Shown here: one piece after another, positions 1-3,021 of the stretch
Position numbering within the stretch: the first letter of the stretch is position 1
How the letters are laid out: the number at the start of each line of letters is the position of its first letter
Source: an uncultured Lacibacter sp.
GTDB taxonomy: Bacteria; Bacteroidota; Bacteroidia; Chitinophagales; Chitinophagaceae
DNA: 16,833 bases
Direction: 5' to 3'
NCBI RefSeq assembly: GCF_946479605.1
Contig: NZ_CAMLGT010000048.1
Coordinates: 1-16,833, forward strand
Position numbers and translations under genes: made by a program
The notes under the pieces: model-generated
What the model saw: only the letters and a program-made list of their open reading frames with translations
Told to the model about the DNA's origin: nothing
Databases searched by the model: none

Positions 1-629
1 CCAAGCACTCTTGCCAAACTTCCCTTTGAATGATCTGTAACAAAATTCACCGATGCTTTATTAGCCTGTTCAATTGTACCATTTTGCTCACGCTGCAGAA
101 TTAGAAATCTCGTATAGTTCTTCTTCATGGTTTGAATGCCGGGAGCGATCACATTCAACCCATACAATTCGGCAGCGAGTTTGCTGGCAATAGCAGCAAT
201 ATGTTTGCTCTTGTGCTGGTAAATATGTTTTGCGCTCAACGCCGTATCTTCTGTTTCAACCAGCTTCCATTTGTATTTATCCAAATAATCGTAGCACTGC
301 TGCAGGGCCATCGTATGCGAATGCACTTCTTTAATATCTTCCAGTTTCACACCCTGGTTGACGATAAGGTTTTGTTTGATGTGCAGGTACACTTCACCAA
401 CAATCGTGAGATTACTTTTTTGCAATAAATTATAGTTGGGCAAAATGCTGCCGGCAATGGAATTCTCAATGGCCATTACGGCTCCATCGCTTTCTTTTTT
501 GTTGGCGCCAATCTTCACCACTTCCCTGAATGTAGCACAGGGAATCACTTCCACATCCTTTCCAAAAAATTGCCTGGCCGCTTCCTGGTGGAAACTGCCT
601 TCGTAACCTTGTATTGTAACTTTCGCCAT
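1..629 (-). CDS. pheA: Prephenate dehydratase, 5' part (runs off the left edge)
   Basis: Converts prephenate to phenylpyruvate in phenylalanine synthesis, in the cytoplasm. The reading frame starts at the ATG at 629-627 and stays open to base 1, giving about 209 codons of a protein usually 270-290 long. Visible family motifs are a GYEGSFHQEAA N-terminus (family YLGPEGSF), AIENSIAGS (family PIENS.EGS), HSHTMALQQC (family HPQALAQC) and TRFLIL near residue 180, the catalytic TRF. The last visible residues (VNFVTDHSKGSLARVL) look like the start of a C-terminal ACT domain, the usual site of phenylalanine feedback inhibition. No chorismate mutase domain precedes it, so this is the stand-alone form. 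There is no Shine-Dalgarno sequence. A hairpin ends 13 nt before the ATG and a Phe-rich leader ORF lies further upstream, so expression is probably attenuated by Phe supply. In related genomes this gene often heads an aromatic operon, but what follows lies outside the window. Confidence 0.95.
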   Translation of the reverse strand, partial: MAKVTIQGYEGSFHQEAARQFFGKDVEVIPCATFREVVKIGANKKESDGAVMAIENSIAGSILPNYNLLQKSNLTIVGEVYLHIKQNLIVNQGVKLEDIKEVHSHTMALQQCYDYLDKYKWKLVETEDTALSAKHIYQHKSKHIAAIASKLAAELYGLNVIAPGIQTMKKNYTRFLILQREQNGTIEQANKASVNFVTDHSKGSLARVL

Positions 630-642
630 AGTCTTAAATGAC

Positions 643-668
643 GAATCCCGACCTTTCGGCCGGGATTC
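643..668 (-). terminator. Attenuator hairpin (3:4 stem) in front of pheA
   Basis: In the minus-strand RNA, GAAUCCCGGCC pairs with GGUCGGGAUUC over 11 bp, closed by a GAAA (GNRA) tetraloop at 657-654. One of the pairs is G-U, so the helix is continuous only in the minus-strand transcript; the plus strand has an A/C mismatch at 651/660. This supports selection on the RNA made toward pheA. The sequence after it (GUCAUUUAAGACU, then AUG) has no real U-tract. The hairpin may therefore end transcription inefficiently, or may instead mask the start of pheA. It is the default structure expected when the leader ribosome does not stall. Confidence 0.75.
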
Positions 669-724
669 TTTATGTTGATTTCGTTTGTTCGTTTAGTTCG
701 CTTTCAACAAAAGGAGTCCCGGCC
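658..724 (-). promoter_or_regulatory. Antiterminator pairing (2:3 stem) of the pheA leader
   Basis: The minus-strand RNA at 724-717 (GGCCGGGA), inside leader codons 20-22, is perfectly complementary over 8 bp to 665-658 (UCCCGGCC). That second segment is the left arm of the attenuator hairpin. The two helices cannot coexist. A ribosome stalled on the Phe codons at about 758-741 would leave 724-717 free, letting this pairing form and releasing pheA. A ribosome that runs to the stop at 693-695 would favour the downstream hairpin. The pairing is seen directly; the switching is inferred from known leader-peptide attenuators. Confidence 0.72.
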
Positions 725-782
725 TCGTTCTAAAATAAAAGAAGCTAAAATAAAAGAAACCGTATGCCTTGTTTGTTGTCAT
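693..782 (-). CDS. Putative Phe/Tyr-rich attenuator leader peptide of pheA
   Basis: A 29-codon ORF with ATG at 782-780 and TAA at 695-693. Its middle reads GFFYFSFFYF, giving 6 Phe and 2 Tyr in ten residues; a further Tyr precedes it at residue 7. The Phe-rich part is built from two tandem 15-bp units (730-744 and 745-759), each encoding FFYF plus one residue. The ORF ends 63 nt before the pheA ATG. It starts 6 nt after a good Bacteroidota -7 element, so its mRNA may be almost leaderless. Downstream lie two alternative RNA pairings of the kind used in ribosome-mediated attenuation. The layout parallels the enterobacterial pheL leader (MKH..FFFAFFFTFP-type), but the sequence is unrelated. It may have no function as a protein; translation itself would be the sensor. 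The ORF is certain; its translation is inferred. Confidence 0.8.
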   Translation of the reverse strand: MTTNKAYGFFYFSFFYFRTRPGLLLLKAN

Positions 783-788
783 GAGATT

Positions 789-818
789 CAAATGTAGACA
801 GGCTTTTCTATAAAACAA
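789..818 (-). promoter_or_regulatory. Promoter of the pheA leader transcript
   Basis: A -33 TTG (818-816) and a -7 TACATTTG (796-789) are separated by 19 nt, a full match to the Bacteroidota consensus TTG-N17..23-TAnnTTTG. The -7 element ends only 6 nt before the leader ATG at 782, so transcription would start at or just before the ATG. Confidence 0.72.
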
Positions 819-899: not shown

Positions 900-928
900 A
901 AAAACGAAAAAAGCCATTCCAGGAATGG
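900..928 (-). terminator. Terminator of the small lipoprotein gene
   Basis: In the minus orientation CCATTC pairs with GAATGG (928-914) around a tiny loop, followed by CTTTTTTCGTTTTT (913-900). This is a short stem with a good T-rich tail. It lies about 100 nt after the lipoprotein stop and upstream of the pheA leader promoter, so it separates the two units. Confidence 0.7.
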
Positions 929-1031
929 AACGGCCGTTAACGATTGCTTGCCATATGAAAATCTTTATAAGATCAAATCCTTACCCGGCAAGCGGGGCTT
1001 TATAGTTGGGTTGATCTATTTCGTTCGCAAA

Positions 1032-1355: not shown

Positions 1356-1922
1356 GTGAAACCTGAGATAAACGAATCGGAATTACTGGCAGGTTTAGCC
1401 CGGAACGACAGGAAGGCTGTGGAAACCCTTTACAAGCTGAATTACAGCATGGTACAGGCGTTTATTGTCAACAATAATGGTACAGCAGACGATGCAAGAG
1501 ATATATTTCAGGAAGCCATGATTGTTCTTTACGAGAAGGTAAGAGAAGGTTCGCTTGAGCTGAACTGCCAGATAAAAACGTACATGTATTCGGTCTGCAG
1601 GCGGCTTTGGCTGAAAAGGTTACAGCAGTTACAACGCTTTGGAGCACCGGTTGAAAGCCTGGAAGATGTGGTACCTGTTGAAGAAGAACTGGAAGAACAC
1701 GAGCGGAAAAATGAAGCATTTGGCGTAATGGAGAAAGCCCTGACGCATTTGGGCGAACCCTGTAAAAGCTTATTAGAGTCCTATTATATACAGAAAAAAC
1801 AAATGCTTGACATTGCAACGGAGTTTGGGTACACCAATGCCGACAATGCCAAAAACCAGAAGTATAAATGTTTAATGCGACTGAAGAAACTATTCTTTGC
1901 TCAATATAAAAAGGTGGACTGA
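1356..1922 (+). CDS. RNA polymerase sigma-70 family (ECF-type) factor
   Basis: A 188-residue cytoplasmic protein of the length expected for ECF sigma factors, which direct RNA polymerase to specific promoters. Residues about 25-93 match the sigma2 region (LYKLNYSMVQAFI, then DDARDIFQEAMIVLYEKVREG, then YMYSVCRRLWLKRL). Residues about 128-182 match sigma4 with a helix-turn-helix (LLESYYIQKKQMLDIATEFGY). An acidic stretch (residues about 101-117) links them. The start is GTG at 1356; the next Met (residue 31) would remove part of sigma2, so GTG is preferred. The stop is followed after 1 nt by the ATG of a membrane anti-sigma/protease protein, indicating one operon and probably coupled translation. 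Its regulator is therefore likely the downstream protein. Its own targets cannot be read from the window. Confidence 0.88.
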   Translation: MKPEINESELLAGLARNDRKAVETLYKLNYSMVQAFIVNNNGTADDARDIFQEAMIVLYEKVREGSLELNCQIKTYMYSVCRRLWLKRLQQLQRFGAPVESLEDVVPVEEELEEHERKNEAFGVMEKALTHLGEPCKSLLESYYIQKKQMLDIATEFGYTNADNAKNQKYKCLMRLKKLFFAQYKKVD

Positions 1923-1923
1923 G

Positions 1924-3021
1924 ATGGATGATATTTTACTTTTAGATGCGACTGAACGTTACCTCAACGGTGAAATGAACGCTGAAGAGAAAGCGATGTT
2001 TGAACAACTCCGTCAAACCAACCAGGAGGTTGACCAGATGGTGGTGGAACATACTTTCTTTTTACAGCAGTTTGAGCGCTATGGTGGCGTACGTGAAATG
2101 AAACACACTCTGCATGATGTGCACAACCACCTAATGCAGGATGGTGAAATAAAAGAAGAGGTACTGTCAACCAGTGCAAAAGTGGTAAATCTATGGAAGC
2201 GTTACAAACGTACCATTACCATTGCAGCCTCTATAGCTGGTATTACAGCTTTGTCTATCAGCAGTATGACATTACTTGTAGCACCAAAGGGTAATGAAAA
2301 GGCTATTACAGACCTCAGTAAAAAAGTTTCGGTATTGGAACGTAACCAACGTGAACAAGCCAGCCAAATCAATACTGTTATCAGCAAGCTTGAGCCAGGT
2401 GCTGTTATTAAAGAAAGCGGTTCAGCCTTTTTAGTTGATACCAAGGGTTATCTTGTAACCAATGCACACGTTGTGAAGAATGCAAAAGGTGCTATTGTGT
2501 TAAACAGTAAAGGAGCTGAATTTAAAGCCATCATTGTTAAGGTTGATGAAGCAAAAGATATCGCCATCCTCAAGATCCAGGATAAAGATTATAAATCTGC
2601 CGGGATACTTCCTTATGCAATCCGCAAATCTTCAACTGATATTGCTGAGCCCATTTTTACATTGGGCTATCCACGTAATGAAATTGTGTATGGCGAAGGT
2701 TACCTGAGTGCTAAAACAGGTTTTAATGGCGATACGCTCAGCTGCCAGATTGCTGTTGCAGCAAACCCGGGTAATAGCGGCGGCCCTGTATTTAACAGGC
2801 AAGGTGAAGTGATCGGTATTTTAAGTACAAAAGAAACAAAAGCTGATGGTGTGGTATTCGCCATCCAGTCGAAATACATTGTTGAAACAGTGAATCAGCT
2901 GAAAAAAGACGATTCAACCATTGAACTGAAACTCCCTTCTAAATCTTCCGTAAAAGGAATGGACGCTGTACAGCAGGTGAAGAAGATCCAGGATTATGTT
3001 TACATGGTGAAAGTATATTAA
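1924..3021 (+). CDS. Anti-sigma-like membrane protein fused to a periplasmic trypsin/DegS-like protease
   Basis: 365 residues from the ATG at 1924. A TTG nine codons earlier would overlap the sigma gene and is less likely. Residues about 8-70 resemble a helical anti-sigma domain (ERYLNGEMNAEEKAMFEQL). A basic KRYKR precedes one membrane span (about 97-119), placing the N-terminus in the cytoplasm. A predicted coiled coil (about 125-153) leads to an S1/HtrA-type protease domain (about 160-325). His182 (TNAHVV), Asp212 (KDIAILKI) and Ser285 (GNSGGP) form an intact catalytic triad. There is no PDZ domain. RseA (anti-sigma) and DegS (protease) are separate proteins in E. coli; here both roles seem joined. 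The likely job is to hold the upstream sigma factor at the membrane and release it on envelope stress. Protease identity is firm; the anti-sigma role is inferred from fold-like sequence, topology and operon position. Confidence 0.82.
   Translation: MDDILLLDATERYLNGEMNAEEKAMFEQLRQTNQEVDQMVVEHTFFLQQFERYGGVREMKHTLHDVHNHLMQDGEIKEEVLSTSAKVVNLWKRYKRTITIAASIAGITALSISSMTLLVAPKGNEKAITDLSKKVSVLERNQREQASQINTVISKLEPGAVIKESGSAFLVDTKGYLVTNAHVVKNAKGAIVLNSKGAEFKAIIVKVDEAKDIAILKIQDKDYKSAGILPYAIRKSSTDIAEPIFTLGYPRNEIVYGEGYLSAKTGFNGDTLSCQIAVAANPGNSGGPVFNRQGEVIGILSTKETKADGVVFAIQSKYIVETVNQLKKDDSTIELKLPSKSSVKGMDAVQQVKKIQDYVYMVKVY

What the first reader, a model, noticed from the sequence alone, without database searches (positions are those of the whole stretch)
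643..818. Complete Phe-dependent leader-peptide attenuator in front of pheA in a Bacteroidota genome
Four independent parts line up: a consensus Bacteroidota promoter, a 29-codon ORF with GFFYFSFFYF, an 11-bp GNRA-capped hairpin just before the pheA ATG, and a perfect 8-bp competing pairing between leader codons 20-22 and the hairpin's left arm. The gene controlled makes phenylalanine. The hairpin includes a G-U pair that works only in the pheA-sense RNA. The logic equals enterobacterial pheL/pheA attenuation, but with unrelated sequence and probably independent origin. I cannot tell whether it has been described before in this phylum.
Basis: partly seen in the sequence, partly recalled or inferred. 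Interest (0 to 1): 0.88.

Follow-up and report, generated by a model that had tools for sequence, protein, structure and literature searches.

The report
Phe/Tyr leader-peptide switch before pheA
Before the gene that makes phenylalanine, this bacterium carries a tiny reading frame full of phenylalanine and tyrosine codons plus two competing RNA hairpins, a classic amino-acid-sensing on/off switch that turns out to be conserved across a large part of the phylum Bacteroidota.

Summary
The window is Lacibacter-like (Chitinophagaceae). On the minus strand: promoter TTG-N19-TACATTTG, a 29-codon ORF (782-693), an 11-bp GAAA hairpin (668-643), pheA from 629. A Phe/Tyr-rich leader precedes pheA in 80 of 80 relatives fetched by PheA similarity. 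Both competing helices are kept with compensatory changes; the antiterminator (724-704 with 678-658, about 18 bp) is longer than reported. In a phylum-wide draw, 31 of 128 prephenate-dehydratase loci have the leader just upstream. On a PheA tree these and five Chitinophagaceae fall in one 38-leaf clade (support 0.986), whose only two other members carry the leader at the head of a longer operon. Operons of relatives also make Tyr, and 81 of 81 leaders contain Tyr codons, so the switch may sense both. Caveat: this window's U-tract is among the weakest (rank 76 of 81), so its terminator may be leaky or act partly on translation. A 2021 Flavobacterium paper already noted a structured 5' element before pheA; no Rfam family matched. 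A well-supported new member of a known mechanism; nothing was measured.

The parts
789..818 (-). Promoter: TTG (818-816), 19-nt spacer, -7 box TACATTTG (796-789)
   Evidence: Read. TANNTTTG lies within 40 nt upstream of the leader start in 74 of 81 leaders, 3.9 expected in shuffles. TAnnTTTG is named as the sigmaA -7 box of a flavobacterium in PMC9723704 (passage).
693..782 (-). Leader ORF MTTNKAYGFFYFSFFYFRTRPGLLLLKAN, 29 codons plus stop
   Evidence: Phe/Tyr-rich leader in 80 of 80 relatives; Tyr in 81 of 81.
732..761 (-). Control codons: GFFYFSFFYF run of the leader (six Phe and two Tyr codons)
   Evidence: 8 of 10 codons Phe/Tyr, 6 of them Phe. In the last eight codons of 81 leaders position 3 is T or C in 636 of 648, position 2 is T in 369 and A in 238.
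704..724 (-). Segment 2 (antiterminator 5' strand) GGCCGGGACTCCTTTTGTTGA, inside the leader ORF
   Evidence: its GCCGGG core starts 8 nt after the last Phe/Tyr codon in 66 of 81 (2 not matched by the pattern used).
658..678 (-). Segment 3 TCAACATAAAGAATCCCGGCC, pairs with either segment 2 or segment 4
643..668 (-). Segment 3:4 hairpin, 11 bp with GAAA loop: terminator in the family; weak U-tract here
   Evidence: 93.1% of cells paired, 8 of 11 pairs with two-sided changes; folds; U score.
1..629 (-). pheA, prephenate dehydratase (PDT), cut by the window end
   Evidence: PF00800, E = 1e-59; 99% identical to Lacibacter cauensis prephenate dehydratase.

Best explanation
This is a ribosome-mediated transcription attenuator controlling the pheA operon by the supply of charged tRNA-Phe, and very likely charged tRNA-Tyr. 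Transcription starts just before the leader ATG. When Phe or Tyr is scarce, the ribosome stalls in the GFFYFSFFYF run; segment 2, which begins about 8 nt beyond the last Phe codon, stays free, pairs with segment 3 as soon as that is made, and prevents the 3:4 terminator, so pheA is transcribed. When both are plentiful, the ribosome reaches the stop codon and covers the 3' half of segment 2; segment 3 pairs with segment 4 and transcription stops before pheA. Shown by sequence: ORF, codons, promoter match, both helices, their conservation, the clade-wide distribution, and the operon content in relatives. Inferred: start site, stalling, termination, response to Phe and to Tyr. In this genome the U-tract is weak, so basal read-through or an added effect on pheA translation is likely.
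For: Leader in 80 of 80 relatives chosen by PheA alone. Terminator stem: 93.1% of cells paired, 8 of 11 pairs with two-sided changes (52 cells, 15.8 in shuffles). Antiterminator: 88.0% paired, 10 of 18 pairs (42 cells, 13.6 in shuffles). Seg2:seg3 mean -22.7, shuffled -7.7 kcal/mol. The leader C-terminus is read in different frames while the RNA is kept (RPGMLLL, SRESFC, SRVVFAKA). Geometry: 8 nt from last Phe/Tyr codon to the segment 2 core in 66 of 81; stop codon 39 nt after the start of that codon in 53 of 81. With segment 2 free the window RNA folds as 2:3 (-26.2); with it left out, as 3:4. Phylum sample: 31 of 128 PDT loci have the leader, all inside one 38-leaf PheA clade; the other two leaves have it at their operon head. 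In 32 distant leaders, 31 with a detected hairpin: 29 have a seg2:seg3 duplex at z of -2 or lower and 29 a T run of five or more. Downstream genes in relatives: aminotransferase and tyrA (L001), the same plus DAHP synthase (L187).
Against: Window U-tract weak (rank 76 of 81, tied with three relatives); T run of five or more in only 51 of 81. For the antiterminator, sliding the partners by one column gives as many pairs with two-sided changes (10 and 11 against 10), so only the fraction paired, the cells (42 against 29 and 33) and the score (0.119 against 0.050 and 0.071) stand out; six of its ten changed pairs lie in the core shared with the terminator. Swapping segment 3 among loci weakens the duplex only modestly (-22.7 to -20.4; 69% of swaps weaker). 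Two of 31 distant leaders fail the duplex test (z 0.0 and -1.9) and one hairpin was not detected. The antiterminator is the more stable helix in only 53 of 81. By a crude motif test tyrA was seen near pheA in 13 of 30 distant positives (DAHP synthase in 29 of 30), so Tyr codons do not need tyrA next door. A 1:2 stem appears in one fold but was not tested for conservation. No expression data.
Confidence: 0.9

Rival explanations
1. Translational attenuation in this genome: the same leader and switch, but the 3:4 hairpin mainly blocks ribosome entry at pheA (its foot is 13 nt from the ATG) instead of ending transcription. (This overlaps with the best explanation: same sensor and switch, different output, in the window's lineage only.)
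For: Weak U-tract; 13-nt spacing in the window and in L002; the fold adds a 5-bp stem GUCAU/AUGGC that takes in the pheA ATG.
Against: 51 of 81 of the set have a T run of five or more; in 30 of 81, including L001 and L003-L005 which are among the closest relatives, the hairpin lies 101-194 nt before the conserved PheA start, so occlusion is not the conserved mode.
Confidence: 0.2
2. The ORF encodes a functional small hydrophobic protein and the hairpin is an unrelated terminator.
For: The peptide is aromatic and hydrophobic and conserved in character.
Against: The C-terminal part changes reading frame among relatives while the RNA pairing is kept; segment 2 inside the ORF stays complementary to segment 3 outside it; in two genomes the leader is at the operon head, away from pheA.
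Confidence: 0.03
3. A metabolite riboswitch or T-box, the ORF being incidental.
For: A structured 5' region before a biosynthetic gene.
Against: No Rfam match at gathering score in the window or eight relatives; the aligned region shows the two helices, and no further conserved structure was looked for; Phe/Tyr codons conserved.
Confidence: 0.02

Closest known systems
Enterobacterial pheL/pheA attenuator (Rfam RF01859 Phe_leader)
   Same: Phe-codon leader peptide, competing antiterminator and terminator, controls pheA.
   Different: No match by covariance model: 17.9 bits against a gathering score of 55, E = 2. Here Tyr codons are present in 81 of 81 leaders, and in relatives the operon goes on to an aminotransferase and tyrA (L001) and DAHP synthase (L187). 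That pheL uses Phe alone is recalled.
Structured 5' element upstream of pheA in Flavobacterium psychrophilum and other Flavobacteriaceae (PMC9723704, 2021; passages and section 19 read)
   Same: Same phylum, same gene, no Rfam hit; the paper reports strong clues for leader-peptide attenuation at amino-acid operons in general.
Bacteroid-trp RNA (RF01692; Weinberg 2010, PMC2864571, table seen)
   Same: Bacteroidetes, marked as probably cis-regulatory, trp by name.
   Different: No match in the window or eight relatives. That it is a Trp leader attenuator is recalled, not seen.
Multi-amino-acid leaders such as thrL and ilvL, and the Lactococcus Leu/phe leader RF01743
   Same: More than one amino acid sensed by one leader (recalled for thrL and ilvL; RF01743 seen only as a table entry).
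   Different: Different codons, genes and phyla (recalled).

Membership tests
Ribosome-mediated leader-peptide transcription attenuator | Short ORF rich in codons for the pathway's product, upstream of the operon | tested here: met
   81 of 81 in the Chitinophagaceae set, window included; 31 of 128 PDT loci phylum-wide, all in one clade.
Ribosome-mediated leader-peptide transcription attenuator | Mutually exclusive antiterminator and terminator helices | tested here: met
   for the antiterminator one measure of the slid controls is not exceeded.
Ribosome-mediated leader-peptide transcription attenuator | Intrinsic terminator with U-tract | tested here: inconclusive
   T run of five or more in 51 of 81 and in 29 of 31 distant leaders with a detected hairpin; weak in the window (rank 76 of 81).
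Ribosome-mediated leader-peptide transcription attenuator | Read-through rises when the amino acid is scarce, dependent on leader translation | not testable with these tools
   Needs expression data.
Rfam RF01859 Phe_leader (enterobacterial pheL) | Covariance-model match above gathering score | tested here: not met
   17.9 bits, cutoff 55.
Rfam RF01692 Bacteroid-trp | Covariance-model match above gathering score | tested here: not met
   No hit in the window or in eight relatives.
T-box or riboswitch | Match to any such Rfam family above gathering score | tested here: not met
   no match to any family.

The most novel reading that the evidence does not exclude
A single-origin, clade-wide Bacteroidota attenuator that senses phenylalanine and tyrosine together with interleaved codons and so governs the Phe-plus-Tyr branch, and that stays at the head of the operon when its gene order changes (in G113, and by similarity G078, it precedes DAHP synthase-chorismate mutase, aroB and aroA, with pheA last). 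In Chitinophagaceae the leader ORF is translated from an almost leaderless 5' end.
Probability: 0.6. Interest if true: 0.65.

Novelty: new member of a known kind. Interest (0 to 1): 0.55.

Why it matters
[quoted passage not shown] Here such a switch is a conserved regulator in a phylum with unusual promoters and, in the flavobacterium studied in PMC9723704, no Shine-Dalgarno sequences (passage). It offers a family of natural variants to ask how Bacteroidota ribosomes and RNA polymerase couple, whether one leader can read two amino acids, and how such switches are kept while the operon is reshuffled. It could also become an Rfam family: none matched it here.

Tried and rejected
A covariance model of segments 2-4 (R1) searched in 395 genomes gave 154 genomes with hits, but weak hits are largely ordinary terminators: of the 30 loci returned (L083-L112), 15 are pheA leaders and 15 are not (29 read; L083 is the Lacibacter cauensis leader already seen as L001). 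So the tally of 154 is not used as a distribution. None of the 30 showed the leader before a gene other than pheA; hits without a locus were not read.

An error of mine: I took loci returned for minus-strand hits as already turned round. They were not. One search corrects, and one search replaces the counts and trees (31 instead of 30 positives, same clade). One search, a first attempt at the correction that guessed strands from stop codons, mis-turned some loci and is discarded. One search was made before this and does not include L141. The motif counts quoted concern only its 30 positives, whose strands were right.

A search for histidine-rich leaders (six His codons, 7 genomes) gave 6 matches in 5 genomes; none of the 5 loci read looks like a leader. 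A scan with an E. coli-type promoter consensus found none in 560-1000. Literature: nine searches; the only paper I found that names a pheA element in this phylum is PMC9723704. Lopatovskaya et al. 2010 (seen only as a citation in PMC4833913) is not held and may list Bacteroidetes attenuators; Vitreschak et al. 2004 is recalled only. So I do not claim that this is unpublished.

Full report
What is there. The window comes from a Lacibacter-like member of the Chitinophagaceae: its PheA is 99% identical to that of Lacibacter cauensis, whose locus is L001. Everything described is on the minus strand. A promoter of the Bacteroidota type (TTG, 19 nt, TACATTTG, 818-789) is followed by a 29-codon ORF (782-693), MTTNKAYGFFYFSFFYFRTRPGLLLLKAN, then an 11-bp hairpin with a GAAA loop (668-643), then pheA from 629. 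PheA is prephenate dehydratase (PF00800, E = 1e-59).

Conservation in relatives. The choice did not look at the leader. In all 80, and in the window, a stop-free stretch of ten codons with at least seven Phe or Tyr codons lies in the 420 nt upstream of the PheA match. Taking the start nearest the run, 79 of 81 begin with ATG and 2 with GTG; the leaders hold 466 Phe, 315 Tyr and 18 Trp among 2262 codons; Tyr is present in 81 of 81, Trp in 17. The last eight codons of the run keep T at position 1 (617 of 648) and T or C at position 3 (636 of 648) while position 2 switches between T and A (369 and 238), which is what selection for Phe and Tyr, not for a base run, would give. A TANNTTTG box lies within 40 nt upstream of the start in 74 of 81, against 3.9 in shuffled sequence, mostly 12-18 nt before the start codon. 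If the box sits around -7 (its name in PMC9723704; exact spacing recalled), transcription starts only a few nucleotides before the leader ATG in this family. In the more distant leaders the box was found in 13 of 32, mostly 25-29 nt upstream, so a nearly leaderless leader would be a Chitinophagaceae trait.

The two helices. In the alignment of 81 leaders (A2) the terminator stem is formed in 93.1% of cells, with two-sided changes in 8 of 11 pairs (52 cells; 15.8 expected from shuffles); sliding the partners by one column gives 57-60% paired, 5 pairs and 9-17 cells. The antiterminator is formed in 88.0%, with two-sided changes in 10 of 18 pairs (42 cells; 13.6 from shuffles); sliding by one column gives 49-51% paired and 29-33 cells but as many changed pairs (10 and 11), so that one measure does not set it apart. 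Six of the ten changed pairs are in the core that the terminator also uses; of the ten pairs outside it, four have two-sided changes, the best being G-C to A-U or U-A in 10 sequences. Shuffles ignore relatedness, so these figures are supportive, not probabilities. Readable examples: GTTGA/TCAAC becomes GTTAA/TTAAC in L046, L065 and L068; GCCGGG/CCCGGC becomes GCCAGG/CCTGGC in L022 with a G-U kept in the terminator; both strands change together in L027, L058 and L038. The seg2:seg3 duplex averages -22.7 kcal/mol, against -7.7 (sd 2.8) with segment 2 shuffled and -20.4 with segment 3 taken from another locus. The C-terminal part of the ORF is read as RPGMLLL, SRESFC or SRVVFAKA in different relatives although the RNA is kept, so that part is conserved as RNA.

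How it most likely works. The segment 2 core begins 8 nt after the last Phe/Tyr codon in 66 of 81. A ribosome stalled in the run leaves it free; one at the stop codon, 39 nt from the start of that last codon in 53 of 81, would cover the 3' half of segment 2, the CTTTTGTTGA part (footprint sizes recalled). For the window, RNA with segment 2 free folds as antiterminator (-26.2), and RNA starting behind it folds as the 3:4 hairpin. Across the 81, the antiterminator is the more stable in 53, so the switch is probably kinetic in the rest. A 1:2 stem appears in the full fold of the window but was not tested for conservation.

The weak point. The window's tail after the hairpin is TTCGTCATTTAAGAC; its U score ranks 76 of 81, tied with L002, L004 and L005. 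A T run of five or more was counted in 51 of 81. In the window and L002 the hairpin ends 13 nt before the pheA ATG, and in the window a 5-bp stem can take in the ATG, so an effect on translation is possible there. In 30 of 81 the hairpin is 101-194 nt away from the conserved PheA start, so this is not the family's general mode.

Breadth. Of 148 genomes drawn from the phylum, 128 have prephenate dehydratase, at 129 places. I examined 128 places; the one left out is G001, the genome of L001. With strands corrected, 30 of 128 have seven or more Phe/Tyr codons in ten within 450 nt upstream, against 1 of 128 on the reverse strand. One more, L213, has six; at six or more the reverse-strand control gives 12 of 128, and I count L213 because it also has the ATG, the terminator and a seg2:seg3 duplex at z -6.0. 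That makes 31. On a tree of 133 PheA domains (these 128 plus five Chitinophagaceae), the smallest clade with all 36 positives has 38 leaves and support 0.986; none of the 95 leaves outside it has six or more. In the two negatives inside it, G113 and G078, the conserved PheA start lies 8 nt behind another ORF. In both, a leader MLITAAIYFTFFYFYFRSQ...N with its own terminator stands at the head of the longer operon; in G113 Pfam identifies the genes as DAHP synthase-chorismate mutase, 3-dehydroquinate synthase, EPSP synthase and prephenate dehydratase, and G078 encodes similar proteins in the same order. So all 38 leaves of the clade carry the leader. For the 95 others only the stretch before pheA was looked at, so a leader at a distant operon head there is not excluded. 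Among 32 distant leaders (L141 not included), one hairpin was not detected; of the remaining 31, 29 have a seg2:seg3 duplex at z of -2 or lower and 29 have a T run of five or more; the misses are L176 (z 0.0) and L185 (-1.9), and for T runs L203 and L229. The one without a detected hairpin, L232, seems to have two leaders in tandem.

What it controls. The window ends inside pheA, so its own operon is not seen. In L001 pheA is followed by an aminotransferase and prephenate dehydrogenase (tyrA); in Maribacter by the same two and DAHP synthase. In L212 and L223 the next ORF looks like DAHP synthase instead (by eye). A crude motif test on 30 distant positives saw DAHP synthase in 29 and tyrA in 13 (motifs recalled, stretches of about 4.3 kb). 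The mixed codons fit an operon that serves both Phe and Tyr; that Tyr is truly sensed is inference.

Comparison with what is known. The mechanism is that of pheL/pheA. It does not match Rfam Phe_leader (17.9 bits, cutoff 55), and no Rfam family reached its cutoff in the window or eight relatives. The closest report found is on Flavobacterium psychrophilum (PMC9723704; passages and section 19 read): structured 5' elements including one upstream of pheA, present in other Flavobacteriaceae genera, without Rfam hits, and leader-peptide clues at amino-acid operons. [quoted passage not shown] I therefore call this a new member of a known kind, with the Phe/Tyr pairing, the single-clade inheritance and the tie to the operon head as its distinctive features.

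Noticed in passing
L232, within 460 nt upstream of its PDT gene: Two Phe/Tyr-rich leader ORFs in tandem (MLQTRFFFGYYYFYAAA and a second one ending VFFTYGYYFFYLKKPARCCQC), each followed by a GC-rich inverted repeat and a T run: possible double attenuator.
   Followed up: partly
window 625-642, minus strand: Just after the hairpin, GUCAU can pair with AUGGC, taking in the pheA start codon; possible translational layer in this genome.
   Followed up: partly
window 912-960, minus strand: A strong intrinsic terminator (GGCCGTTCCATTCCTGGAATGGC, then six Ts) upstream of the leader promoter, preceded by the block ATATGGCAAGCAATCGTTAAC; block and terminator are nearly identical in L002, L006 and L014, as if they were the conserved 3' end of an unknown transcript.
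   Followed up: no
L001 and L003, between the hairpin and the conserved PheA start: In L001 PheA has an N-terminal extension whose DNA includes CCCCCTTGAGGGGGCGGAGGGGG, with a like stretch in L003; looks like repeat insertions next to or inside the gene start.
   Followed up: no
window 1356-3021, plus strand: A sigma-70 family factor (Sigma70_r2) next to a protein with a trypsin-like domain, a possible sigma/regulatory protease pair.
   Followed up: no
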